The notes under the pieces: model-generated | Database searches by the model: none | The model's input: the letters and a program-made list of their open reading frames with translations, nothing else | Told to the model about the DNA's origin: nothing | DNA from: an uncultured Candidatus Melainabacteria bacterium | GTDB lineage: Bacteria > Cyanobacteriota > Vampirovibrionia > Gastranaerophilales > Gastranaerophilaceae | Assembly: GCA_934692485.1 (NCBI GenBank) | Contig: CAKUTX010000001.1 | Coordinates: forward strand, 62,001-126,000 | Length of the DNA: 64,000 nucleotides | Direction: 5' to 3' | Program-made: the position numbers and the translations under genes | Shown: piece after piece, positions 1,622 to 62,125 of the stretch | Position numbering within the stretch: position 1 is the stretch's first letter | How the letters are laid out: each line of letters opens with the position of its first letter

Positions 1622-4201
1622 TTACTTTGGTTTCACCACGGACAGCACATAATTTTCGGTAAACACTTTATTTGCGACTTCTATAATATCACTTTCGGTC
1701 ACACTATTAATCAATTGAGCATATTGATTATCAAAATTATATCCTCTGCCAGATGCCTCAAACCAACCAATAGTAGTCGCTTTATCCAAATTAGTTTCTT
1801 GTCCTATAATATAATGCCCCAAAAGTTTATCTTTCGCTTCTTGCAATTCTTTTGAGCCAACAAACTCTGTTTTCAATCTAAAAACTTCTTCTTTCATTCT
1901 CTTTTGCGCATAATCAAGATTTTCAGGATTTGTGCCAATATACGTAATAAATGCTCCCTTCAAAACATGTGGAGAAAATTGTGATCCCAATTGATAAGCC
2001 AAACCATCTCTATCTCTTAAATTTTTAAACAAACGAGAACTCATTCCTGAGCCCAACAACGAGTCTATAACTTGTAAAGTTGCGTATTCTTTACGATTTA
2101 GAACCCCTGACGTTTGCCAACCCATTATTATCCAATCTGTTTTCAAGTCTTTTACTGTTGAGCATGCCTGTTTTTTCGTCAACAAAGATGGTATAACAAA
2201 TCTGTCATAATCAAGTTTTCCGCCTTTTTTCTCATTAAATATTTTTGTAAGCTCTGTCATAATTTTGTCTTTATCAACATTTCCGTTAACAGAAATCACA
2301 ACATTTTCAGGGTAAAAAGCTTCATCATAATAAGCTTTTACGTCTTTTTGAGAAATTTTCGGCAATGATTTTTCCAACACTTTATTCGAATAAGAATATG
2401 GAGTATTCTCATATATCAAAGTTTTATAATTATCTACCGCAATATTTAGTGGAATGTCTTTGCTTTTCTTTATAGAATTCAATTCATCATTTCTTGATTT
2501 TTCAATTTCGAAATCATCAAGCGTAGCATTATTAACAACTTCATTTAACAAATCCAAAGTTTTGTCCAAATCTTTTTTCGTCGACAAAACAGTTATATCA
2601 AAGCTATCAAATTTTGCGGACGGAACAATTTTTATCCCGTTGTCCTCTAAAATTTGAGCAAATTCAACGGATGAATATTTTTTAGAACCTTTGGTCAAAA
2701 CATCTGCCAGCAAATCAGCCGTTCCTGGAATTTTTTCCAAGAGATTTCCACCTTTTGCAAAAATACTTATTGCCACAATATCATTAACTTTATTCGGAGT
2801 TAACAACAAAGTTGCACCATTTGATAATTCATATTTTTGCGTTGTTTTATTTTCACTTATAAACTTTGCATCTTCAACTTTTTGTGAAACATTAGAAACC
2901 TTAACCTCTTTGCATTTTTCTGGTAAAACTATTGATATAGCGCTTTTTTCTTTACCTAAATATTTATTTGCAGCATTTTTCACATCCTGAGCTGTAACTT
3001 TTTTTATATTATCTAAATAATTTTCATAATATTTTGTATCCCCAGTAGTTACAAACGTGTACCCTATTTCTCCAGCAATATTAGAAATAGACTCCCTTTC
3101 ATAATACGTATCACGCTCTATAACATTTTGAGCGAGTTGTAATTGTTCCAGAGTTACGCCGTGTTTTTGAATATTCGTAATTTCTTCAAATATACTATCC
3201 TGAAGTTTTTCGCATTTATCTGGTGCAAATGTAGATGAAATATAGAAAATTCCATCATCTTTAAAGCCTGTATTTGCGGCACCTATGGTATCAGCAAGCA
3301 ATTTTTGCTCTTTTATGTTTCGATAAAAAACAGATGAGCGGCCATCTCCAAGAATCGTTGCTAAAACATCCAAAGCATATGAATCTTTAGCATCAATTTT
3401 TGCTCCTCTAAAACCTATCAACATATAACCTGACTGAGTATCGAAATACGCTATTTTTTTAGCTTGAGCAGATAATTTTTTTTCTTTAGGGTAAACATTT
3501 TTTATAGGGATTTTATATTCAGCATTAAAATCAGATTTAACTTTTTCTATCACAGAATTCGATTCAACATCTCCAACGATTACAGTAACCATATTAGACG
3601 GATTATAATACTTGTTATAATAATCCATTATTTGCTCTCTATGAATAGTACTAATTATATCAGCTTTCCCAATAACTTTTCTTTTGTAAGGGTGATTAGA
3701 ATATAACATATTAACCAAATTGTCATAAACAAGAGTATTCGGGGAATTTGCATCCTTCATAATTTCTTCAATAACAACTTTTCGTTCTTTTTCCAGCTCT
3801 TTTCTCGGTATAAGCGGATGGAGCAACATATCTGAATGCATTTCAAGAGCCAAATCAAAATCTTTAGAAGGGATTGTTACATAATAGTGGGTAAAATCTT
3901 TACTTGTTGCTGCGTTTGTAATTGCACCTTTTGTTTCTAATATTTTGTCAAACTCCCCAGGAGCGTGATTTGTAGAACCTTTAAAAAACAAATGCTCTAA
4001 GAAATGTGAAACACCGTTATTTTCATCATTTTCGTTTATAGAACCAGTTTTTATCCAAGTATCAATTGTAACAATCGGATTAGACTTAACCTCTTGAATT
4101 ACAACATTCTGCCCATTAGGCAGTTTATAAACATTAAAATCTGCAGCAATAGCACAATCTGCGAACAATACTAATGCACAAATAATTAAAAATTTTTTCA
4201 T
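1622..4201 (-). CDS. Two-domain M16 zinc metalloprotease, exported, 859 aa
   Basis: Signal peptide MKKFLIICALVLFADCAIAA, then two consecutive M16 (pitrilysin/MPP-like) units. Unit 1 carries the inverted zinc motif HFLEH (His66, Glu69, His70) and a downstream acidic ligand region (KVVIEEI, Glu145/146). Unit 2 (about residues 450-859) has lost the zinc motif (GTADLLADVL at the equivalent place) but has the Arg/Tyr pair (LFKNLRDRDGLAY, about 729/736) usual in non-catalytic M16 partners. So one chain contains both the catalytic half and the substrate-binding half that M16B enzymes often split between two subunits. Likely a periplasmic peptidase. A stand-alone catalytically dead relative is encoded at 12284-13498. 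Start supported by the signal peptide and an upstream GAAGGGG ribosome site. Confidence 0.93.
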   Translation of the reverse strand: MKKFLIICALVLFADCAIAADFNVYKLPNGQNVVIQEVKSNPIVTIDTWIKTGSINENDENNGVSHFLEHLFFKGSTNHAPGEFDKILETKGAITNAATSKDFTHYYVTIPSKDFDLALEMHSDMLLHPLIPRKELEKERKVVIEEIMKDANSPNTLVYDNLVNMLYSNHPYKRKVIGKADIISTIHREQIMDYYNKYYNPSNMVTVIVGDVESNSVIEKVKSDFNAEYKIPIKNVYPKEKKLSAQAKKIAYFDTQSGYMLIGFRGAKIDAKDSYALDVLATILGDGRSSVFYRNIKEQKLLADTIGAANTGFKDDGIFYISSTFAPDKCEKLQDSIFEEITNIQKHGVTLEQLQLAQNVIERDTYYERESISNIAGEIGYTFVTTGDTKYYENYLDNIKKVTAQDVKNAANKYLGKEKSAISIVLPEKCKEVKVSNVSQKVEDAKFISENKTTQKYELSNGATLLLTPNKVNDIVAISIFAKGGNLLEKIPGTADLLADVLTKGSKKYSSVEFAQILEDNGIKIVPSAKFDSFDITVLSTKKDLDKTLDLLNEVVNNATLDDFEIEKSRNDELNSIKKSKDIPLNIAVDNYKTLIYENTPYSYSNKVLEKSLPKISQKDVKAYYDEAFYPENVVISVNGNVDKDKIMTELTKIFNEKKGGKLDYDRFVIPSLLTKKQACSTVKDLKTDWIIMGWQTSGVLNRKEYATLQVIDSLLGSGMSSRLFKNLRDRDGLAYQLGSQFSPHVLKGAFITYIGTNPENLDYAQKRMKEEVFRLKTEFVGSKELQEAKDKLLGHYIIGQETNLDKATTIGWFEASGRGYNFDNQYAQLINSVTESDIIEVANKVFTENYVLSVVKPK

Positions 4202-4312
4202 ATTATCCCCTTCTGAAATTTAATATTAACTATGTAAACATAATACAATAAATTTTGAAATTAGAAAACAGGGGGATTAATAAAAGTACACTCTATATTT
4301 GAGGATTAACAC

Positions 4313-4582
4313 TTACTTAAATATTTTTTTAATAAACGGGAAAGCTACAGCCAAAGCACCCAAGCCTAGTGCAACAAATACAGACGTTGGAGTTTTCTTT
4401 TTTCGAATGTCCTCAGAATTTTTCATAGAGACGTATAAATCGTGATTTAAAACCTGAAAATCCTTTGATGCCTGAACATGAGAATACAGAACAGGCTTGT
4501 AATGATTGTCCGGCGGAACAATCACCCCAACTCTGAGTGGCGAATTTTTCATATTTTGATTTACACTAACACTATTCTCCAT
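4313..4582 (-). CDS. Small protein with C-terminal membrane anchor, 89 aa
   Basis: Unrecognised. I place the start at ATG 4582 (MENSVSVNQN...), preceded by AGAAAG, rather than the upstream GTG at 4603. The N-terminal two thirds is polar; the C-terminus is a single hydrophobic helix (TSVFVALGLGALAVAFPF) ending in lysines (IKKIFK), as in tail-anchored inner-membrane proteins. Divergent from perR, with which it shares the 4583-4720 intergenic region. Possibly stress-linked only by position; function unknown. Confidence 0.55.
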   Translation of the reverse strand: MENSVSVNQNMKNSPLRVGVIVPPDNHYKPVLYSHVQASKDFQVLNHDLYVSMKNSEDIRKKKTPTSVFVALGLGALAVAFPFIKKIFK

Positions 4583-4661
4583 ACTTTCTATAAAACAAAT
4601 CACAATATTTAATTGCTTAAAAATGAAGAAATGTAAAAAGAATAATGTTCATTAAATTGTC

Positions 4662-4689
4662 TTGACAAAAATTTTTCTTTGAATAAAAA
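4662..4689 (+). promoter_or_regulatory. Candidate sigma-70 promoter of the perR-rubredoxin-flavodiiron operon
   Basis: TTGACA at 4662-4667, 16-base spacer, then TAAAAA at 4684-4689. The -35 is perfect, the -10 weak. It directly abuts the palindromic operator at 4690. Confidence 0.5.
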
Positions 4690-4704
4690 TGATAATTGTT
4701 ATCA
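4690..4704 (+). promoter_or_regulatory. Per/Fur-like operator palindrome
   Basis: TGATAATTGTTATCA is a perfect 6-3-6 inverted repeat. It closely resembles Per-box and Fur-box half sites (TGATAAT). It lies between the promoter and the start of a PerR-like gene, where bound repressor would block initiation. Inference: negative autoregulation of the operon. Confidence 0.7.
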
Positions 4705-4720
4705 CTTTTATGGAGAAATA

Positions 4721-5110
4721 ATGAATTACTCAAGACAACGTGAAATAATTCTTGAAACTCTTAAACAAAATGTAGTTCATCCGACTGCAGAGTATCTATA
4801 CAAGATTTTACACGAAAAAGAACCTAATATTAGCCTTGCCACATTATACAGAAATCTTAATCAATTGGCTGAAAACGGGATTATAAAAAAAATTGACGGT
4901 TTAGAAAGTAGTTCTCATTTTGACCATAACACACACGAACATTTCCATTTTATTTGTGATAATTGCAAAAAAGTTTTTGACGTATCTGTTGATGTTGCCC
5001 CAGACGTTGTAACAAAAACAGAGTCAGAAACTGGTTTTGAAGTAAAAGGTTATGACATATCTTTGCATGGACTTTGCAAAGAATGTAAAAAACAATTAAA
5101 AAATAAATAA
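4721..5110 (+). CDS. perR: PerR-like peroxide-sensing repressor of the Fur family, 129 aa
   Basis: N-terminal winged helix (NISLATLYRNLNQLAENGIIKKI) followed by a Fur dimerisation domain. Both structural zinc pairs are present (CDNC and CKEC). The five residues known as the regulatory iron site of Bacillus PerR have counterparts: His in HPTAEYLYK, Asp in SSHFDHN, the two His of HEHFHF, and Asp in KKVFDV. In this family iron-catalysed His oxidation by peroxide releases DNA. ATG 4721 with TGGAGAA upstream is chosen over a TTG at 4679, which lies in the promoter. Heads a run with rubredoxin (5143) and a flavodiiron protein (5333). Fur or Zur remain alternatives. Confidence 0.8.
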   Translation: MNYSRQREIILETLKQNVVHPTAEYLYKILHEKEPNISLATLYRNLNQLAENGIIKKIDGLESSSHFDHNTHEHFHFICDNCKKVFDVSVDVAPDVVTKTESETGFEVKGYDISLHGLCKECKKQLKNK

Positions 5111-5280: not shown

Positions 5281-5332
5281 TATATTACCACTAAATCTTT
5301 TAGTGATAAAATATTCACGAAAGGAAAGTATA

Positions 5333-6520
5333 ATGAAATTTCAAGAAATTAAAAACAATATATATTATTGTGGATTAAATGACTGTGACAGAAGAATTTT
5401 TGATGAACTTATCCCACTTGAACACGGCACAAGTTACAATTCATACTTAGTTAAAGGCTCTGAAAAAACAGCCATTATAGATACAATGTATCCACCAAAA
5501 ACAAAAGAATACTTAAAAAGATTATCCGACAACCAAATAGGAAAAGTTGATTACATCATAGCAAACCACGGAGAACAAGACCATTCAGGCTCAATTCCGG
5601 CATTGTTGGAAAAATATCCGAATGCAATTGTTTTAACTAATCCAAAAGTTGCCGAAAATATTAAAAACATGCTCTTCGTTCCTGCTGAAAAAATACAAGT
5701 TATTGCAGACGGAGAAGAAGTTTCTCTAGGAGATAAAACTCTAAAATTTATTTTTGCTCCGGGAGTTCATTGGCCTGATACAATGTTTACATATATTAAA
5801 GAAGATAATGTAATTTTCACTTGCGACTTTTTAGGAGCACACTATACATTTTCAGATGTATTTGCCCAAGAAAGTGTTGAACTCGAAAAAAGCGCAAAAC
5901 GCTATTATGCTGAAATTATGATGCCATTTAGAATGATGTGCAAAAAATATACTCAAATGATTAAAGATATGAATGTCGATATGGTTTTACCAAGTCACGG
6001 ACCTGTATATAAAAACCCAAGCTTTATTTTAGATTTATATACAGACTGGACTTCTGACAAACCGAAAAATTTAGTTGCGTTGCCGTACGTGTCAATGTAT
6101 GAAAGCACAAAAGACATGATTGATTACTTAAGCAAAAAATTGGAAGAAAAAGGCATTCAAACTTTCAAATTCGACATGGTAGAAGATGATTTAGGCGACT
6201 TGGCAATGACATTAGTAGATGCCGCAACAATTGTCATGGGCACATCAATGGTACTTGCAGGTCCTCATCCTGTTTCCGTAAATGTTGCTTATATAGCATC
6301 AGTGCTAAGACCAAAAGCAAAATTCGCTTCATTAGTCGGTTCATATGGATGGGGTGGCAAATTATTTGATTTAATAGCCCAAATTCTAACTCCATTGAAA
6401 TTAGACTTGATAGAACCACTTCAAGTAAAAGGAAAACCGACAGAAGAAGATTTCAAAAAACTCGATGTAATGGCAGAAACCATTTATGAAAAACATAAAT
6501 CAATAGAAATAGTAAAATAA
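5333..6520 (+). CDS. Flavodiiron protein (FprA/rubredoxin:oxygen oxidoreductase type), 395 aa
   Basis: An N-terminal metallo-beta-lactamase-like domain carries the diiron ligands: HGEQDH (NHGEQDHSGS), His in GVHWPDT, Asp in FTCDFLGAH, and His in LPSHGP. A C-terminal flavodoxin domain (from about residue 250, LVALPYVSMYESTKDMIDYL; later VGSYGWGG) binds FMN. The enzyme reduces O2 to water, protecting anaerobes. Start at ATG 5333 with GAAAGGAAAG upstream; the frame stays open 41 codons further, but that part overlaps the rubredoxin gene and is not protein-like. Third gene of the PerR operon, 52 bases after rubredoxin; a small CACTAAA/TTTAGTG hairpin lies between them (5289-5305). Confidence 0.93.
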   Translation: MKFQEIKNNIYYCGLNDCDRRIFDELIPLEHGTSYNSYLVKGSEKTAIIDTMYPPKTKEYLKRLSDNQIGKVDYIIANHGEQDHSGSIPALLEKYPNAIVLTNPKVAENIKNMLFVPAEKIQVIADGEEVSLGDKTLKFIFAPGVHWPDTMFTYIKEDNVIFTCDFLGAHYTFSDVFAQESVELEKSAKRYYAEIMMPFRMMCKKYTQMIKDMNVDMVLPSHGPVYKNPSFILDLYTDWTSDKPKNLVALPYVSMYESTKDMIDYLSKKLEEKGIQTFKFDMVEDDLGDLAMTLVDAATIVMGTSMVLAGPHPVSVNVAYIASVLRPKAKFASLVGSYGWGGKLFDLIAQILTPLKLDLIEPLQVKGKPTEEDFKKLDVMAETIYEKHKSIEIVK

Positions 6521-6523
6521 AAA

Positions 6524-6549
6524 AAGAGCGGATTTAAAAATCCGCTCTT
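6524..6549. terminator. Hairpin after the flavodiiron gene
   Basis: AAGAGCGGAT and ATCCGCTCTT form a strong GC-containing stem just after the stop codon. The plus-strand T tail is poor, whereas the minus-strand side has a long T run. It most likely ends the PerR operon; bidirectional use is possible. Confidence 0.6.
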
Positions 6550-6634
6550 AACATTTGTAATATTTTATAAAATTTTAGCAATTATTTTACTGTACATGTT
6601 TTACTAGTAGTATAAAAATTGGAGGAAAAATTAT

Positions 6635-6859
6635 ATGATTAAAGCAATTAACTTTTTAGGAAAACCAGATGCCCCAGGAGCAGTATCAAATGTAGCTGCA
6701 ACAAAGCCAGAAATTAAAGCAGAAGCACCAGCTCCAAAAACTGCAGAGCCTGCAAAAGATACATTTGTTCCATCTGCACCAAAGGCTGAAGAAGCTCCTA
6801 AAGCAGACCCGAATGATAAATTCGAAAAAGCAGAAGCTAAACCGGCAGAAGCTAAATAA
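6635..6859 (+). CDS. Small Ala/Pro/Lys/Glu-rich low-complexity protein, 74 aa
   Basis: Good ribosome site (GGAGG at 6621) and a start MIKAINFLGKPDAPGAVSNV. The rest consists of imperfect KAEAPAP/KAEEAPKA units with no secretion signal or membrane segment, so it is expected to be disordered. No family recognised. Its first residues resemble the N-termini of other small proteins in this window (10130, 9662, 42600): Met, then an I/IN pair, then F-x-G. Followed by a strong terminator, so a single-gene transcript. Confidence 0.6.
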   Translation: MIKAINFLGKPDAPGAVSNVAATKPEIKAEAPAPKTAEPAKDTFVPSAPKAEEAPKADPNDKFEKAEAKPAEAK

Positions 6860-6890
6860 TAAAAATAAGAAATATTTTTATGAAAACAAC

Positions 6891-6918
6891 AAAAAAGCTC
6901 GAAAATTCGAGCTTTTTT
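6891..6918. terminator. Bidirectional intrinsic terminator
   Basis: AAAAAGCTCGAA/TTCGAGCTTTTT is a perfect stem with an A run before and a T run after, so it works in both directions: for the small gene at 6635 and for the efp-accB-accC operon coming from the other side. Confidence 0.85.
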
Positions 6919-6936
6919 ATTTTATTTATTTCGAAA

Positions 6937-8295
6937 TTACTTTTTATTCCGACCTGTTCGTTCATAAAAATCTTCAATAAATCCTGTATTGAATTTTCCA
7001 CTCATGAACACCGGATCCTCAATAATAGCTTGATGAAACGGAATAGTTGTTTCAACACCGGTAATAACGTATTCTTTCAAAGCTCTGTACATTCTACGAC
7101 GAGCTTCATTTCGTGTTCTACCCCAACAAATCAATTTACCTATCATTGAATCGTAATACGGAGGAATTGAATAATCTTGATAAGCATGAGAATCAACTCT
7201 CACACCAAATCCGCCTGGTGTAACGTAACCTGTAATAGTTCCAGGATTTGGCATAAAATCTTTTTCAGGATTTTCAGCATTAATACGACATTCAATAGCA
7301 TGTCCTCTCAACATTATATCATCTTGAGTAAAGTCTAATCTTTCTCCAGCAGCAACCATAATTTGTTCTCTAACCAAATCCACATTAGAAATCATTTCTG
7401 TAACACAATGTTCAACCTGAATTCTAGTATTCATTTCCATGAAATACCATTTGCCGTCATGGTCTAGTAAAAATTCACAAGTTCCAGCGCTTTCATAATT
7501 AATAGCTTTTGCAGCTCTAACAGCAGCAGCACCCATTTCTTTACGAGTAGCTTCATCAATCGCTGGAGAAGGAGCTTCTTCCAAAAGTTTTTGATGTCGT
7601 CTTTGAATAGAGCAATCTCTTTCGCCTAAGTGAACAACATTGCCATATTGGTCAGCCAAAATTTGAACTTCAATATGACGAGGATTTTCAAGAAATTTTT
7701 CAGCATAAACATCAGGATTACCAAAGAAATTTTGAGCTTCTGATTGGCAAAGATTCATATTTACATCAACTTCTTCATCAGATCTGCAAATTCTCATACC
7801 TTTACCACCACCACCAGCAGTAGCTTTCAATATTATTGGATAACCAACTTTATGCGCAAATTCTTTTACTTCTTCTGGAGTTTTTAAAATTCCTGTACCT
7901 GGAGTAACTGGAACATTATTTTCTATCATTGTTTTACGAGCTGTAGCTTTATCACCCATTTTTCTCATAGCTTCAGCAGTAGGTCCGATGAATTTGATAC
8001 CATGTTTTGCACAAATCTCAGCAAAATCAGCTCTTTCAGACATAAATCCATACCCTGGGTGAATTGCGTCTGCACCAGATACAATAGCAGCAGAAATAAT
8101 TGCTGGAATACTCAAATAGCTTTTTGCACTTTGAGCAGGTCCTATGCAATATGCTTCCGTAGCCAATCTTACGTGTAAAGAATTCGCATCAGCTTGAGAA
8201 TAGATAGCAACGGTTGGAATACCGATTTCTCTACAAGCTCTTATAATCCTTACTGCAATCTCCCCACGGTTTGCAATTAATACTTTTCTAAACAT
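6937..8295 (-). CDS. accC: Biotin carboxylase subunit of acetyl-CoA carboxylase, 452 aa
   Basis: ATP-grasp biotin carboxylase; it carboxylates the biotin on AccB with bicarbonate and ATP, the first step of fatty acid synthesis. The start [21 protein letters not shown] is diagnostic. It also has the Gly-rich ATP loop [11 protein letters not shown], the catalytic region [16 protein letters not shown] and the C-terminal biotin carboxylase domain. Full family length (~450). Downstream of accB by 67 bases in an efp-accB-accC cluster, and ends just before the shared terminator at 6891. Confidence 0.97.
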
Positions 8296-14283: not shown

Positions 14284-14351
14284 GGGCGGAATTTCATTCC
14301 GCCCTGTCTGATATTATTTCCGCAAAAAGTTCCCGTGGTTCGCGCAGAGCA
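14284..14351 (-). promoter_or_regulatory. Conserved post-stop block with GC-rich hairpin (candidate IMH, copy A)
   Basis: Directly after the TGA the block TG-C/T-TCTGCGCGAACCACG, GAACTTTTT, CGGAAATAATATCAGAC is conserved with copy B with only 4 differences, and ends in a 9-bp stem GGGCGGAAT/ATTCCGCCC (14284-14304) whose 3-base loop differs between copies. A conserved segment plus hairpin just after a variable region is how DGR initiation-of-mutagenic-homing sites look. The hairpin could instead, or also, be the gene's terminator. Confidence 0.55.
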
Positions 14352-14477
14352 TCAATCACCTAAGCAAAGCACCTGAGCGTCGCCGCTGCTGCGGTAGTTG
14401 CCTCTGGCGCCGCGCGTGACCGACGAGTAGAAGAAGCGGTTGCTCGCGTTGGATCTATCGTTCTCCTCTCCTGACCA
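14352..14477 (-). other. DGR-type variable region at the 3' end of gene A
   Basis: The last 41 codons (from the Trp of FVWSGEE to the stop) align without gaps to 56580-56705. Counting by eye, codons 6-40 differ at 37 bases: 17 first, 13 second and 7 third positions. Fifteen codons end in C in both copies and differ only in bases 1 and 2, as expected when AAC codons of a template are randomised at adenines. About 20 of 28 core codons are NNC in this A/T-ending genome. No reverse transcriptase or template repeat is in the window. Confidence 0.82.
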
Positions 14478-15698
14478 AACGAAGAAGCCAGCTTTACTTG
14501 TTGGGAAGCCCATTGAAGAGACTTTTGAGGTGTCTAAGGTTATACCACTATATATACTTTCATAATTTCCTACGCTTGGATGTTCTTTGTATAACTCTGT
14601 TGCAAGTTTGCCTAAGTCCTCCATGGTTGGCATTTTACTTACTCCTCCACATTGTTTTACTGCACCGGCCCAATAATCATTGTCGGAATGACATTCTTTT
14701 ATACCTAACTTATCTTTCTCGGATTCGCATTGAGCTTTTGTTAACGGTGTTGAAGGAACTGGGGCTGTAAAGCATTTTCCACCAAGTTCAAATGCACAAT
14801 TATTACCTAAACCACTCGCTGGGGCTAACATTGTGACATCTTTGCCTAATTTATTCGGCTTTGAGCTCCCGTTCCAGTCAAAAACTCCTGCCAAGCAAGA
14901 AAGGGAGCTCGATTTTGAGTCAGAATAACTAAAACCTTTATCATCTACGCTAAATTCACATTTTTTGTTGTAACTCAAAATCATGCCTGTGCCATCACCT
15001 GTAACTATTCCGACGGTATCCGCCCAATCTTCAGTATTTGTTGAGATTTTTAAGGTTTTCGCATTCTTTGTCTTTGCGATTTCCCAAGTTTTTCCTTCAT
15101 CATTAAGGGTAACTTCTTGAGTCGGCCAACACTCGGCCAAGTGTTCGTTATCACAAATTTTAGCGATTTTCATGTGTTTTGACATTTCTTGGACAAAAGC
15201 CATTGTCGTGTCGTAACCTGTCAAACCGCTCTGTACAGCCATTTTATCTGTGACTTTACTTAGTTTTTGATTAATGTTTTCAATACGTTTTTGCTGAACT
15301 CGGTCTTGGATATTAGTGATTAGTGCAGGCATTGTTAATGCTGCAACAACACCGATTATGCCCAATGTTATCAATACTTCTGCAAGGGTGAAGGCTGCTT
15401 GGCCCCCTCTATTTTGACGATTAACTGCGCCTCGCGTTAAACGGCACCGTTCGCAATCATCTCCACACCAACGTATGAGGTAGGAACCAATATTGTCACA
15501 GTGGGCTACGTGCGTAGCACCCGCTGATTCTTGCTCACCTCTCGCTCCGCTCGTGCCTCTGCTCGGCTTGCTCTCCCTACGTGGGGCGAGGGAACTAGTT
15601 TCTATGCACGTCTGCGAAGTAGATCGCGCAACTAGTGCGCGATGACATAAAGTCTCGCTCGACTTGTCTGCACGATTACATGCATAACCTGTCCACAA
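14352..15698 (-). CDS. Prepilin-like surface protein A with DGR-type variable C-terminus; probably out of frame with its proper start
   Basis: Contains the prepilin methylation signature QAAFTLAEVLITLGIIGVVA, a coil of about 50 residues, a Cys-containing middle domain, and an end (VWSGEE...CLGD) resembling the C-type-lectin-like domains diversified by DGRs. Such proteins are exported by type II secretion/type IV pilus-like machines and displayed on the surface. The listed frame starts at a TTG with no ribosome site. The proper start is almost certainly ATG 15760 behind AAGGAG, but a run of 7 G (15730-15736) puts it out of frame (stop after 12 codons); 8 G would restore a ~468-residue product. 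The leader is unusually long (about 100 residues) and shares shuffled modules with gene C. Copy B is at 56580. Confidence 0.8.
   Translation of the reverse strand: MWTGYACNRADKSSETLCHRALVARSTSQTCIETSSLAPRRESKPSRGTSGARGEQESAGATHVAHCDNIGSYLIRWCGDDCERCRLTRGAVNRQNRGGQAAFTLAEVLITLGIIGVVAALTMPALITNIQDRVQQKRIENINQKLSKVTDKMAVQSGLTGYDTTMAFVQEMSKHMKIAKICDNEHLAECWPTQEVTLNDEGKTWEIAKTKNAKTLKISTNTEDWADTVGIVTGDGTGMILSYNKKCEFSVDDKGFSYSDSKSSSLSCLAGVFDWNGSSKPNKLGKDVTMLAPASGLGNNCAFELGGKCFTAPVPSTPLTKAQCESEKDKLGIKECHSDNDYWAGAVKQCGGVSKMPTMEDLGKLATELYKEHPSVGNYESIYSGITLDTSKVSSMGFPTSKAGFFVWSGEENDRSNASNRFFYSSVTRGARGNYRSSGDAQVLCLGD
15551..15570 (-). repeat. Right copy of the 20-bp inverted repeat
   Basis: Exact reverse complement of 14215-14234, lying in the leader-coding region of gene A and continued by more GC-rich sequence (CTCGCTCCGC before it). 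No counterpart is present in copy B, so it came with the extra leader modules. Confidence 0.7.
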
Positions 15699-51051: not shown

Positions 51052-52101
51052 TTAATAGTCAAACTTAAAATTGTTATTCAACAAGTGACCAAAACATCCG
51101 CCGTAGCTGTCATCTTTACAAATATTTTCAAATCGCCATTCTCTTTTTTCTTGCGCAGAATATTGCTCACATTTGAAATCATCATCATTATAGTCGGCAT
51201 CAATTCTTCCTCTACACTCAGGTCCAACACTACCTTCGTCAATAACTCCATCATAGAATATACTCATTGACCATAAATCATAACCTATTCTATTAGGTCC
51301 TTTCTTGCCGTTTACATCTACAAATAAGTCAATTGGAGCAGGATGCTCTTTATTTCTCCAATATCCAATTTTTATAACACTACCGTCCGCTAGAACATAG
51401 TCTCGATATTCATTCCACCTTGCTGTTGAAGTTGTAAAATCACGTGCTTCATCCGGAATTGAATTATCCCACCATCTATACACAGGCGCAAAACAATTGT
51501 TATCGGCCTCGTCACTATGATTACATTCTTTAACAACTTTTAAGTATTTAGTCGCAAAATCTCTGATAGATGCTATGGCTTCAGGAGTATCATTATCTTC
51601 ATAATTATCACCAGCAAGAGGGGTATTGCGCAAATCATCTACTCCATAATCCGCCATATATTGTTTCACTGCCTGTGACATAGTTGAATAAAATTTTTGT
51701 GTTTGTGTCGCAAGTGCTTTCTTTTGGTAATTTTGTATCAAGCTCGGCAACGTCATCGCCGCAACAACACCGATTATGCCCAAAGTTATCAATACTTCCG
51801 CCAATGTAAAAGCTGCTTTGCCCCCTCTATTTTGGCTACTTACTTCGCCTCGCGATAAACGGCACCGTTCGTCTAGGCCCCCTCTCCCTAGCCCGTCTTG
51901 GATTTGCTCCACGCTCACAGAGTTTCGCATAAATTGCTCCGCAATAACATGCTCAATCTGTTCGCTATCCGGACTCGCTTCGCTCCGTCCGTACGCAAAT
52001 CCGCTCTCCCATCGAGGGGCGAGGGAATTAGTTTCGCCACTGTTGGCTACGTGCGTAACACCTTCCGCCAAAGTAAGTCCAAAATTATGTCCTAATTTCA
52101 T
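51052..52101 (-). CDS. Prepilin-like protein C with unusually long leader, 349 aa
   Basis: Strong start (AGGAGG before ATG 52101). A leader of about 105 residues precedes the prepilin signature KAAFTLAEVLITLGIIGVVAAM (hydrophobic N-helix of pilins and pseudopilins); typical prepilin leaders are 5-30 residues. The mature part (~245 residues) has the pattern of large Cys-containing pseudopilins of this group and ends GGCFGHLLNNNFKFDY. Leader modules shared with gene A: GVTHVANS, ETNSLAPRWES, and ERCRLSRGEVSSQNRGG, in a different order. No DGR-type variable end. Own promoter with an operator-like palindrome at 52208-52236. Confidence 0.82.
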   Translation of the reverse strand: MKLGHNFGLTLAEGVTHVANSGETNSLAPRWESGFAYGRSEASPDSEQIEHVIAEQFMRNSVSVEQIQDGLGRGGLDERCRLSRGEVSSQNRGGKAAFTLAEVLITLGIIGVVAAMTLPSLIQNYQKKALATQTQKFYSTMSQAVKQYMADYGVDDLRNTPLAGDNYEDNDTPEAIASIRDFATKYLKVVKECNHSDEADNNCFAPVYRWWDNSIPDEARDFTTSTARWNEYRDYVLADGSVIKIGYWRNKEHPAPIDLFVDVNGKKGPNRIGYDLWSMSIFYDGVIDEGSVGPECRGRIDADYNDDDFKCEQYSAQEKREWRFENICKDDSYGGCFGHLLNNNFKFDY

Positions 52102-56511: not shown

Positions 56512-56579
56512 GGGCGGAATGGAATTCCGCCCCGTCTGATATTATTTCCGTAAAAAGTTCTCGTGGTTCGCGCAGAACA
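56512..56579 (-). promoter_or_regulatory. Conserved post-stop block with GC-rich hairpin (candidate IMH, copy B)
   Basis: Counterpart of 14284-14351. The stem GGGCGGAAT/ATTCCGCCC (56512-56532) is kept while the 3-base loop changes, so the structure, not just the sequence, is maintained. IMH or terminator, or both. Confidence 0.55.
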
Positions 56580-56705
56580 TCAATCAGCTATGCACACCGC
56601 CTGAGCTCTGCCGCCGTCGCGGCGGTAGCTGTTGTGCCAGCCCGTGCTCGATGAGTCGAAGTACCGGTAGTACGCGCTGAGGCTATCGCCCTCCTCTCCC
56701 GACCA
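56580..56705 (-). other. DGR-type variable region at the 3' end of gene B
   Basis: Last 41 codons, gap-free with 14352-14477; same NNC codon enrichment and first/second-base divergence. Encodes VWSGEEGDSLSAYYRYFDSS and onward to AVCIAD, an aromatic/Ser/Gly-rich surface as in C-type-lectin DGR targets. Confidence 0.82.
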
Positions 56706-57722
56706 AACGTAGAACTCAGAGCCTGTAAAGCCCATTGAAGAGGCTTTTGAGGTGTCTAAGGTTAGATTTGATGAGCGTATATTTGATGTATTATATAAAA
56801 CCTTTGCTAGTTCTGTTAAATCTGCTTCTGTTGGCATTTTACTTACTCCGCCACATTGTTTTACGGCACCCGCCCAATAATCATCGGCGTAATTACATTG
56901 TTTTATTCCTAATTTGTCTTTTTCTGCTCTGCATTCGGCTCTTATTAATGGTGTTGGAGTAACTGGTGCTGTGAAACATTTTCCATTTACTTCAATCGCG
57001 CATTCTGTTCCTAAACCTGTTGCCATTCCGAGGGTTGTAACGTCTTTTTTTAGCTTATTTGGTTTTGAGTTTCCGTTCCAGTCATAAACTCCTGAAAGAC
57101 AAACTAATGAGTTGGATTTGCCTGTAGAATTATCGTATTTTAGACCGCCATCATCTACGCTAAATTCACATTTTTTGTTATAGCTCAAAATCATGCCTGT
57201 GCCGTCACCTGTGACTATCCCCACGGTGTCAGCCCAATCTTCAGTATTGGTTGAGATTTTTAATGTTTTCGCATTCTTTGTCTTTGCGATTTCCCAAGTT
57301 TTGCCTTCGTCATTAAGGGTAACTTCCTGTGTAGGCCAACATTCGGCCAAATGTTCGTTATCGCAAATCTTGGCGATTTTCATGTGTTTTGACATCTCTT
57401 GGACAAATGCCATAGTCGTGCCGTAGCCTGTCAAACCGCTCTGTACGGCCATTTTATCTGTGACTTTACTAAGTTTTTGGTTAATGTTTTCAATACGTTT
57501 TGCCTGAATTCGGTCTTGAATGTTAGTGATTAATGCAGGCATTGTTAGTGCTGCAACAATGCCGATTATGCCAAGGGTGATTAGGACCTCGGCCAATGTA
57601 AAAGCGGCTTTGCCCCCTCTCTTTTGGTTACTTACTGCACGATGACATTCATAATCTGTCCACAATCCACTATTAACGGGAGTTGAGCTTAGAGTACCCC
57701 CCCCCGTTACAATTCTTAACAT
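56580..57722 (-). CDS. Prepilin-like surface protein B with DGR-type variable C-terminus, 380 aa
   Basis: Paralogue of gene A: near-identical prepilin helix (KAAFTLAEVLITLGIIGIVAAL) and first ~150 mature residues, diverging in the middle and strongly in the last 41 codons. With nine G at 57697-57705 the frame runs from ATG 57722 (MLRIVTGGGTLSSTPVNS). That ATG is 14 bases from AAGGAG; the ideally spaced ATG 57729 is out of frame unless the tract has 8 (or 11) G. So B is probably expressed, perhaps weakly. Leader ~42 residues. Surface pseudopilin-like adhesin, likely exported by the machine that includes the GspF/PilC protein at 60887. Confidence 0.82.
   Translation of the reverse strand: MLRIVTGGGTLSSTPVNSGLWTDYECHRAVSNQKRGGKAAFTLAEVLITLGIIGIVAALTMPALITNIQDRIQAKRIENINQKLSKVTDKMAVQSGLTGYGTTMAFVQEMSKHMKIAKICDNEHLAECWPTQEVTLNDEGKTWEIAKTKNAKTLKISTNTEDWADTVGIVTGDGTGMILSYNKKCEFSVDDGGLKYDNSTGKSNSLVCLSGVYDWNGNSKPNKLKKDVTTLGMATGLGTECAIEVNGKCFTAPVTPTPLIRAECRAEKDKLGIKQCNYADDYWAGAVKQCGGVSKMPTEADLTELAKVLYNTSNIRSSNLTLDTSKASSMGFTGSEFYVWSGEEGDSLSAYYRYFDSSSTGWHNSYRRDGGRAQAVCIAD
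57697..57705 (-). repeat. Poly-G tract (9 G) near the start of gene B
   Basis: Counterpart of 15730-15736 but two bases longer. With 9 G the second ATG is in frame; with 8 G the first ATG would be. Confidence 0.65.
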
Positions 57723-60886: not shown

Positions 60887-62125
60887 TTATAATATAGCAC
60901 CAATTGCCGCATAATACATTTGGATAATACCTAAAGCAATAAAGCCAACACAAATACCCATAACAATTATCAGTGTCGGTTCAAAAAGCTTTGATAGTGT
61001 CGTTAAGGCAATATCTACCTTCTTGTCTATAACATCTGCGACATCTCGAAACATTTTACCAAGAGTTCCAGATTTTTCACCAGTCGCTACCAACGAATGT
61101 AGAGCATTTGGAAGTATATTTGTTCTCTCAAATGCCTCAGATAGAGATAAACCCCTTTTTATATAAGTGATTAAATAAGTTGCTTGATTTTTTATTGTAT
61201 TATTTCCAATAGTTTTAGTTGCCAACTCTATACAGTCCATAATTGGCATTCCAGCTTCATAAGCAACGTGCAAAACCGACATAAAATTAGACAAATTTAT
61301 GTATTTTATAAATTCAGATACAGCCGGAATTTTCAACACAAAATTATCCCACTTACTTTTAATCGCAATATTATGAAACATTGAAGTTATTGCACAAGAA
61401 AAAGCTCCAATACCAACCAAAACAAGCCACCAAAACTTGTCTATAAACTGACAAAAGCCAATAAGCATTTGTGAATAAATCGGCAAATCAATACCATTAG
61501 TATTCAACATCCCATAAAAAACAGGAAAAACAAGTTTTGAGAATAAGATTAAAAGCCCAACCATTAAAGCTACAACAATAGTCGGATATATAGAGGCACT
61601 TATTATTTTATCTTTTATCCTTTCTTGTTTTCGCAATAAAACTAACATTCTATCAAGCGTTACTTCAAGCTCACCTGCTTCTTCTCCTGTTTTCATCAAT
61701 GCTGTATATACAGGGCCAAAAACAGAACCATACAAACTGGTCATCGCTTGTGCAAAAGTCATGCCAGCCATAATTTTTTCAGCAATTTTATGACAAATTG
61801 TAGCAATTTTGGGCTTTGGTGTATTTTTTTCAACTGTATGTAATGCTGTTACTATTGGAATTCCTGATGACAACAACACTTGCAATTCTGATGTAAAAAA
61901 TATTTTTTCTTGCAAGCTCAAACGTTTTACTTTTTTGTCTGCCGTATCATCAGTCGAAGAATTTTGAGAATAATCCTCTATAATAGCTTCTTCAGTATAA
62001 ACTTTTGTAGGTAAAAAACCTAATTGGCGAATTTTTTCTCTTGCTTCTCTTGCACATGAAGCCTCTACTTCGCCTTTTATAATTTGCCGATTATTTTTTA
62101 ATGCACTATATTGATATTTAGCCAT
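60887..62125 (-). CDS. Type II secretion/type IV pilus platform protein (GspF/PilC), 412 aa
   Basis: N-terminal segment YQYSALKNNRQIIKGEVEASCAREAREKIRQLGF, then two GspF domains (LSLQEKIFFTSELQVLLSSGIPIVTAL... and a second beginning LSNFMSVLHVAYEAGMPIMDCI) with three membrane helices and the TGEEAGELEVTL/TGEKSGTLGKMF motifs of each half. It anchors the assembly ATPase in the inner membrane; likely serves prepilin-like proteins A, B and C. No GspE/PilB or prepilin peptidase gene is in the window. Confidence 0.94.
   Translation of the reverse strand: MAKYQYSALKNNRQIIKGEVEASCAREAREKIRQLGFLPTKVYTEEAIIEDYSQNSSTDDTADKKVKRLSLQEKIFFTSELQVLLSSGIPIVTALHTVEKNTPKPKIATICHKIAEKIMAGMTFAQAMTSLYGSVFGPVYTALMKTGEEAGELEVTLDRMLVLLRKQERIKDKIISASIYPTIVVALMVGLLILFSKLVFPVFYGMLNTNGIDLPIYSQMLIGFCQFIDKFWWLVLVGIGAFSCAITSMFHNIAIKSKWDNFVLKIPAVSEFIKYINLSNFMSVLHVAYEAGMPIMDCIELATKTIGNNTIKNQATYLITYIKRGLSLSEAFERTNILPNALHSLVATGEKSGTLGKMFRDVADVIDKKVDIALTTLSKLFEPTLIIVMGICVGFIALGIIQMYYAAIGAIL

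What the first reader, a model, noticed from the sequence alone, without database searches (positions are those of the whole stretch)
14352..14477. Two prepilin-like genes end in DGR-type variable regions
Genes A (14352-14477) and B (56580-56705) align without gaps over the last 41 codons. By eye, codons 6-40 differ at 37 bases: 17 first, 13 second, only 7 third. Fifteen codons end in C in both genes and differ only at bases 1-2 (AAC/GGC, TCC/CTC, GTC/AGC, GCC/CAC, TAC/CGC, AGC/GAC), the expected result of adenine mutagenesis of AAC codons. Both ends code for aromatic/Ser/Gly-rich sequence closing in a Cys, like the C-type-lectin ligand surfaces of known DGR targets, while the preceding ~150 mature residues are almost unchanged. 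A hypervariable tip on a pilin-like, exported protein of a gut cyanobacterial relative would be a self-evolving surface binder.
Basis: partly seen in the sequence, partly recalled or inferred. Interest (0 to 1): 0.95.

Follow-up and report, generated by a model that had tools for sequence, protein, structure and literature searches.

The report
Retroelement-diversified pilin lectin repertoire
Two pilin-like genes of a bacterium related to the gut group Gastranaerophilales end in hypervariable tips whose letter changes follow the signature of a diversity-generating retroelement, and in three related genomes one template beside a reverse transcriptase matches 8 to 23 such variable regions, so these bacteria likely keep rewriting a whole set of predicted surface-binding proteins.

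Summary
Genes A (14352-15698, -) and B (56580-57722, -) differ in their last 41 codons at 17/13/8 bases by codon position; the first 160 mature codons differ at 12/5/46. The window holds no detectable RT or template repeat (TR), and its genome is not held. Relatives hold the machinery: in G034 an Avd gene, an AAC-rich TR and a DGR-type RT follow a prepilin gene with a variable region (VR). That TR matches 20 VRs; TR adenines are changed at 375/869 sites, other bases at 95/1637. G053 (23 VRs) and G175 (8) agree. In 108 unique tails of A, B and homologs, all 15 columns aligned to TR Asn codons are hypervariable; 21 of 27 others carry 2 bits or less. The C-terminal domain is predicted to be a C-type lectin fold. 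Best reading: VRs of a DGR acting in trans on dispersed type IV prepilin-like lectins. Untested: whether this genome still has the RT, pilus display, ligands. Against: 12 of 16 sampled genomes with GC-rich VR-like tails show no DGR RT.

The parts
14352..15698 (-). Gene A ORF: prepilin-like variable protein; the upstream part of the called ORF is probably read-through, the true start lying shortly before the FTLAEV motif
   Evidence: N_methyl E=2.4e-4 (21 bits, cut-off 21.2); TIGR02532 18.6 bits, cut-off 16.3
15318..15392 (-). Gene A prepilin N-terminal helix FTLAEVLITLGIIGVVAALTMPALI
14355..14801 (-). Gene A region homologous to B's predicted C-type lectin domain (limits approximate)
   Evidence: model of B
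14352..14477 (-). Gene A variable region (VR)
14284..14304 (-). 9-bp-stem hairpin 47 bases after gene A's stop, within a flank shared with B; role unknown (terminator or homing feature)
56580..57722 (-). Gene B ORF: prepilin-like variable protein
   Evidence: N_methyl E=3.3e-4 (20.5 bits, cut-off 21.2); TIGR02532 19.2 bits, cut-off 16.3
57528..57602 (-). Gene B prepilin N-terminal helix FTLAEVLITLGIIGIVAALTMPALI
56583..57005 (-). Gene B C-terminal domain, predicted C-type lectin fold (model residues 201-341)
56580..56705 (-). Gene B variable region (VR)
56512..56532 (-). 9-bp-stem hairpin 47 bases after gene B's stop
60887..62125 (-). T2SSF/PilC-type inner-membrane protein of a pilus or type II secretion system, 3.2 kb from gene B; shows that an assembly-system gene is present, no more
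   Evidence: PF00482 E=6.5e-48

Best explanation
The last 41 codons of genes A and B are most likely variable regions written by a diversity-generating retroelement (DGR) that would act in trans on a dispersed family of type IV prepilin-like proteins with a predicted C-type lectin tip. Shown in relatives: an Avd gene, an AAC-rich template repeat and a DGR-type reverse transcriptase sit together, and the same template matches 8 to 23 VRs scattered over the genome; of the 26 VR genes there that are not cut by a contig end or a fetched edge, or truncated near a contig start, 22 carry the prepilin motif. Inferred from known DGRs: template RNA is copied with random bases at adenines and the cDNA replaces the 3' end of a target gene. 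An AAC codon can then become only NNC codons (15 amino acids, no stop), while codons without adenine (Arg CGC, Phe TTC, Ala GCG, Cys TGC) cannot change and would keep the fold. The protein would be processed by prepilin peptidase and displayed through a type IV pilus or pseudopilus, giving each lineage its own set of ligand-binding tips. Mosaic modules upstream of the VR suggest a second layer, recombination among paralogs.
For: (1) Codon-position pattern in the VR against the gene body: 17/13/8 against 12/5/46, p=4e-7. (2) G034 (L065, all on +): prepilin VR gene 3675-4967, Avd 5298-5669 (NF033474 E=1e-19, 70.8 bits, under its cut-off 80; PF22296 62.9 bits, over its cut-off 40), TR 5875-6005, RT 6195-7391 (PF00078 over its cut-off; GLPIGNLTSQ and YVDD motifs). 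(3) TR against VRs: G034, 20 VRs, A sites changed 375/869, others 95/1637, p=1e-111; G053, 23 VRs, 441/965 against 65/1905, p=2e-170; G175, 8 VRs, 172/370 against 45/616, p=3e-46. (4) Window A and B against the best-scoring of three foreign TRs: p=2.8e-4 and 2.6e-8; both against the G034 TR: p=7e-5 and 5e-6. (5) 108 unique tails of A, B and 120 homologs: the 15 columns aligned to TR Asn codons carry 2.97-3.75 bits and 4.6% K/E/Q/M/W (74/1596) against 24% upstream; 21 of the 27 other columns carry 2 bits or less (Cys 108/108, Phe 102/108, Arg 98/108 and 101/105). (6) Predicted CLec fold with the VR in its last strands. (7) Prepilin peptidase and T2SSE ATPase in 5 of 5 DGR-bearing genomes searched; T2SSF in the window.
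Against: No RT, Avd or TR found in the 64 kb; genome not held. The window's shared 3' flank is in 0 of 146 order genomes. The three nearest held genomes by a CNNM/CorC-type protein (G038, G076, G035; 91-92% identical) are not among the 41 of 383 with an RT like that of G034; G166 (89%) and G044 (87%) are. Of 16 sampled genomes with a GC-rich VR-like tail, 12 have no such RT; one tail from each, tested against foreign TRs, shows a weaker pooled bias (254/503 against 211/975) and in 2 of the 12 it is not significant at 0.05. Six of the 27 columns that are not Asn in the G034 TR carry more than 2 bits; four of these (Tyr, Ser, Lys, Tyr) have adenines in their codon, two (Trp, Arg) do not, perhaps because the TR of this species differs. 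The mid-protein patch also varies and is also low in K/E/Q/M/W (9.0%), so that shortage is not unique to the VR. P0003, a close relative protein, has B's exact VR, so the VR is not changing in every lineage.
Confidence: 0.9

Rival explanations
1. Fossil DGR: A and B were diversified by a DGR that this lineage has since lost; the VRs are now static leftovers. (It shares the DGR origin with the best explanation, so the two confidences overlap.)
For: No RT or TR found in the window; 12 of 16 sampled genomes with GC-rich VR-like tails lack a detected DGR-type RT; Treponema denticola strains with leftover VRs and no RT or TR are described (PMC4891356, passages); a protein with B's exact VR but a partly different N-terminal part exists (P0003).
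Against: The 122 tails of A, B and the 120 listed homologs fall into 108 distinct sequences. Assembly gaps can hide RTs: G117 has a TR-like repeat but no DGR-type RT hit.
Confidence: 0.25
2. Recombination and gene conversion among paralogs with positive selection on a surface loop, without a DGR.
For: The family is large (280 of 286 genomes have a homolog of B; up to 211 first-look candidates in one genome); modules upstream of the VR occur in different combinations among 16 G034 paralogs.
Against: It does not predict changes concentrated at adenines of a separate AAC-rich repeat beside an RT, nor conserved codons between hypervariable ones.
Confidence: 0.05
3. Ordinary divergence of two old paralogs; the codon-position bias is chance.
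For: Two sequences alone are few data.
Against: p=4e-7 against the gene body, and adenine-focused change in 51 VRs of three genomes.
Confidence: 0.02

Closest known systems
Treponema denticola TvpA-type DGR (PMC4891356, passages read)
   Same: one RT and TR serving several remote targets (two to seven per isolate); strains with VRs but no RT or TR; CLec fold of TvpA (recalled, and the title of a reference seen)
   Different: several targets there are predicted lipoproteins; here prepilin-like proteins, with 20 and 23 VRs in two genomes
Cyanobacterial DGRs with remote variable proteins (PMC7517822, passages read)
   Same: CLec variable proteins with remote paralogs (76 remote targets in 21 genomes); same broad phylum (recalled)
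   Different: most of those proteins are predicted to be cytosolic; no prepilins in the passages read
Bacteroides type V tip pilins diversified by DGRs (Macadangdang 2024, not held; known here from one passage of PMC12632263)
   Same: gut bacteria, DGR, pilus tip protein
   Different: type V pili built from lipoproteins in Bacteroidales; here type IV prepilin-like proteins of Gastranaerophilales
DGRs with very many VRs per TR (Yan 2019, PMC6642488, passages read)
   Same: 271 of 948 DGRs have multiple VRs and some single TRs have a dozen or even hundreds
   Different: the worked example there (91 TR-VR pairs, six TRs) is atypical, with few A-to-N substitutions; here changes are concentrated at adenines
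Bordetella phage BPP-1 mtd DGR (prototype; described in PMC4891356 passages; cassette order recalled)
   Same: VR-Avd-TR-RT order as in G034, adenine mutagenesis, CLec target
   Different: phage tail protein, one target (recalled)
Bd2740 C-terminal domain of Bdellovibrio (8oks), intimin and Legionella Lcl C-terminal domain
   Different: sequence identity 13-15%; a fold resemblance shows no shared function

Membership tests
Diversity-generating retroelement target (VR) | VR at the 3' end of a gene whose differences from a TR fall at TR adenines | tested here: met
   Against foreign TRs only: A 24/43 against 18/81, B 27/47 against 8/77; the species' own TR is not available
Diversity-generating retroelement (cassette) | TR near a DGR-clade RT in the same genome as the VR | tested here: inconclusive
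   Not found in the window; genome not held. Present in relatives G034, G053, G175
Diversity-generating retroelement (cassette) | accessory Avd protein | tested here: inconclusive
   Not found in the window; in G034 NF033474 70.8 bits (cut-off 80), PF22296 62.9 bits (cut-off 40), phrog_3206 E=3.3e-27
Diversity-generating retroelement target (VR) | C-type lectin fold carrying the VR | tested here: met
Diversity-generating retroelement (cassette) | IMH/IMH* element at the 3' end of VR and TR | tested here: inconclusive
   A and B share a 3' flank with a hairpin; 14 of 20 G034 VR flanks have some hairpin within 150 bases, but of other sequence and place; no own TR to compare
Diversity-generating retroelement (cassette) | mutagenic retrohoming activity | not testable with these tools
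   needs reads or experiments
Type IV prepilin-like protein | prepilin N-terminal cleavage/methylation motif | tested here: met
   TIGR02532 18.6 and 19.2 bits over its cut-off 16.3; PF07963 21 and 20.5 bits, just under its 21.2
Type IV prepilin-like protein | prepilin peptidase and assembly ATPase in the genome | tested here: inconclusive
   5 of 5 DGR-bearing relatives searched have both; genome of the window not held, T2SSF in the window

The most novel reading that the evidence does not exclude
An adaptive, antibody-like repertoire on pili: one template repeat continually rewrites the lectin tips of dozens of dispersed type IV prepilin paralogs in gut Gastranaerophilales, while recombination shuffles the modules behind the tip, so that each cell lineage shows its own evolving panel of binders for host, diet, microbe or phage surfaces.
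Probability: 0.5. Interest if true: 0.88.

Novelty: new variant of a known kind. Interest (0 to 1): 0.78.

Why it matters
DGRs with several VRs are known (271 of 948 in Yan 2019; up to seven targets per isolate in Treponema denticola). Here one template serves at least 20 and 23 variable regions in two genomes of a gut bacterial order, changes fall mainly at adenines, and 22 of the 26 uncut VR genes in three genomes are prepilin-like. If the proteins are displayed, this is a bacterial surface repertoire that could be read directly from metagenomes, linking a mutator to what these bacteria bind. It also warns that assemblies may break at such near-identical genes: 21 of 23 G053 VR genes run off an edge, so repertoires of this kind are probably undercounted.

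Tried and rejected
TR or RT inside the window: none found. Window 3' flank: exact pattern in viral contigs 0, a 281-base stretch in phage records no match, 0 of 146 order genomes with up to 2 mismatches. P0002 in viral contigs: none. TR reading fused to an RT protein in the database, looked for to find the window species' own TR: 8 of the 120 listed RTs have an Asn-rich stretch, but it is an N-terminal low-complexity tail, not a TR. The A/B hairpin as a conserved homing element: not supported, as hairpins after G034 VRs differ in sequence and place. RTs of G114 (26% identical to the G034 RT, IGYYLSQ motif), G058 (334 aa, PQGGICSP) and G163 (no motif hit) were not taken as DGR RTs. G055 has a DGR-type RT, but my scans found no TR or Avd beside it. 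Foldseek alone gave no match under E 0.001; the fold rests on VIA-align. A regex look at eight further loci printed nothing. Papers: 'diversity-generating retroelement' with Gastranaerophilales 0; 'diversity-generating' with Melainabacteria 0; DGR with 'pilin' 10 and with 'type IV pil' 8, of which I read passages of three only (PMC6642488, PMC6199706, PMC12632263); Gastranaerophilales with pili 6, listing only; five-term searches, listings only apart from the papers named (none of the 10 listed holds the DGR term). Subscription papers and bioRxiv are not held, so a report elsewhere cannot be excluded. Roux 2021 (PMC8144416): 0 hits for pilin, pilus, prepilin or Melainabacteria in the main text.

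Rows dropped before counts: one search dropped 3 of 23 non-TR hits (L101-L103, score under 90); one search dropped 1 of 24 in G053 (L158) and 0 of 8 in G175. The first look scored at most 30 candidates in G034 and G053, so VR counts are lower bounds. One search ignored TR positions past 125; one search used all 131 and so counts a few end mismatches against adenine bias. One search used 108 unique tails of 122 proteins (A, B and the 120 listed of 5568 found). The structure alignment used 83 sequences. One search used 16 of the 20 G034 VR genes. The '16 genomes' are those of the 22 tails printed (from 30 loci) with GC of at least 0.50 in the last 135 bases, a cut chosen after seeing the rows. 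The '26 uncut VR genes' are my count: 18 in G034 (all but L082 and L091), 2 in G053, 6 in G175.

Full report
What is there. Genes A (14352-15698, minus) and B (56580-57722, minus) lie about 41 kb apart. Each has, after a probably read-through N-terminal part, a prepilin motif (FTLAEVLITLGIIG; TIGR02532 over its cut-off) and ends in a 41-codon stretch rich in Tyr, Ser, Gly and Asn, closing in a Cys three residues before the final Asp. In this last stretch A and B differ by 17/13/8 bases at codon positions 1/2/3, while the first 160 mature codons show 12/5/46, the usual sign of purifying selection. The contrast has p=4e-7. Nineteen of 41 codon pairs end in C in both genes.

Is the machinery in the window? 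Not that I could find. A relative's RT and Avd find nothing above noise (best E 0.49 and 5.8), and a relative's TR finds only A and B. The window's genome is not held. A third prepilin at 51052-52101 has no such tail.

Relatives. The one locus found in the genome collection is a Candidatus Gastranaerophilales MAG (L001). Of 286 genomes of its order, 280 have a homolog of B, some with over 100 first-look candidates. A CNNM/CorC-type protein of the window is 92% identical to that of the nearest held genome. A reverse transcriptase family search rang in 141 of 383 genomes; in 41 of 383 there is a hit to the G034 RT at E 1e-30 or better. One of the 120 listed RT relatives is named after a Candidatus Gastranaerophilales bacterium by its source (P0262).

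The cassette. In G034 contig C19 (L065) a prepilin gene with a VR, an Avd gene, an AAC-rich template repeat and a DGR-type RT follow each other in one orientation. The TR reads FWLWSSEEYSKNNAYNRNFNSTNTNRNNNNRNNSNNQAVCLG; the window family reads ..VWSGEExxSxxAYxRxFxSSxTxWxxxxRxxSxxQAVCLGD (by eye). Among the 30 loci brought by this TR from the order, 8 hold an AAC-rich repeat of the same frame (G034, G053, G175, G178, G052, G103, G117, G292); G149 has another.

The adenine test. With the TR of each genome: G034, 20 VRs, adenine sites changed 375/869 (43%) against 95/1637 (5.8%); G053, 23 VRs, 441/965 (46%) against 65/1905 (3.4%); G175, 8 VRs, 172/370 (46%) against 45/616 (7.3%). In G034, 17 of 20 VR ORFs show the prepilin motif (one, L087, is only 153 codons long); of the other three, L082 and L091 lie within 400 bases of a contig start and L100 is different. 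In G053 1 of 23 shows the motif, 21 run off an edge and 1 (L156) lacks it; in G175 4 of 8 show it, 2 are cut and 2 lack it. A and B of the window, tested against the best-scoring of these three foreign TRs, give 24/43 against 18/81 (p=2.8e-4) and 27/47 against 8/77 (p=2.6e-8).

Protein-level test in close relatives. A database search found 5568 homologs of B among the 7998 candidates scored; the best 120 were listed, 66-99% identical. With A and B they give 108 unique tails. Aligned to the G034 TR, the 15 columns with Asn (14 AAC, one AAT) carry 2.97-3.75 bits, whereas 21 of the 27 other columns carry 2 bits or less (Cys 108/108, Phe 102/108, Arg 98/108 and 101/105). K, E, Q, M and W, which NNC codons cannot encode, make up 74 of 1596 residues (4.6%) at the Asn columns against 24% upstream. 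Of the six other columns above 2 bits, four have an adenine in their G034 codon and so may mutate; two do not. The mid-protein patch is also low in these five residues (9.0%), so that measure alone is not specific.

A second layer. Sixteen complete G034 paralogs are nearly identical over the first 140 mature residues (mean entropy per ten residues 0-0.4 bits), variable in the VR, and mosaic in between: alternative modules recur in different combinations. This looks like recombination among paralogs and also fits the A/B differences upstream of the VR. I did not test it statistically.

Display. All five DGR-bearing genomes searched have a prepilin peptidase and a T2SSE ATPase; the window has a T2SSF protein. 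Export and display are therefore plausible but inferred; whether these are pilus tips or pseudopilins of a secretion system is unknown.

What speaks against. Of 16 sampled genomes whose best B homolog has a GC-rich VR-like tail, only G034, G053, G055 and G175 have a hit to the G034 RT. Loss of the RT, as in some T. denticola strains, and gaps in assemblies are both possible. The three nearest held genomes to the window lack such a hit, though G166 and G044, 89% and 87% identical by the same protein, have one. So the origin of the VRs by a DGR is well supported, but an RT in this genome is not shown.

Known or new. DGRs with dispersed targets are known (T. denticola, two to seven per isolate; cyanobacteria with remote CLec proteins), as is DGR diversification of type V tip pilins in Bacteroides (one passage). 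Yan 2019 reports that 271 of 948 DGRs have multiple VRs and that some single TRs have a dozen or even hundreds, its example being atypical with few A substitutions; it also mentions putative pilin structures linked to DUF1566 CLec domains. In the held library I found no paper joining DGRs with Gastranaerophilales or Melainabacteria. The type IV prepilin-like targets, their number per template and the lineage make this a new variant of a known kind.

Noticed in passing
G034 paralogs L081-L099; window 14478-14912 and 56706-57122 (upstream of the VRs): Mosaic modules between the conserved N-terminal part and the VR (for example HVWNGC.../VTKAEC.../LTHAEC... and QEQLDQLARDLY/DTELMKLAEELY in mixed combinations) suggest recombination among paralogs.
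   Followed up: partly
G055 contig C65 (L062:1-600): A DGR-type RT without a TR or Avd found beside it; by eye a GIY-YIG-like ORF and dispersed repeats occupy the upstream stretch.
   Followed up: no
window 14352-15698 and 56580-57722, N-terminal ends: The called ORFs start upstream of the prepilin motif in stretches that look like translated dispersed repeats (ERCRLTRG.., HAELVSAS.. types in relatives), so annotated starts of this family are unreliable and vary between proteins.
   Followed up: no
window 51052-52101 (-): A third prepilin-like gene without a VR.
   Followed up: partly
G053 contigs (L135-L157): Of 23 VR genes, 22 lack the prepilin motif in the fetched stretch and 21 of these run off an edge, several VRs lying within a few hundred bases of a contig start, as expected if near-identical paralogs break assembly.
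   Followed up: partly
L067 (G149:C48) and L106 (G175:C118): The TR lies in the same open frame as the downstream RT, so TR and RT could be read as one ORF.
   Followed up: partly
L087 (G034:C3:79081-79196): A VR gene of only 153 codons that has both the prepilin motif and a VR tail, perhaps with an internal deletion.
   Followed up: no
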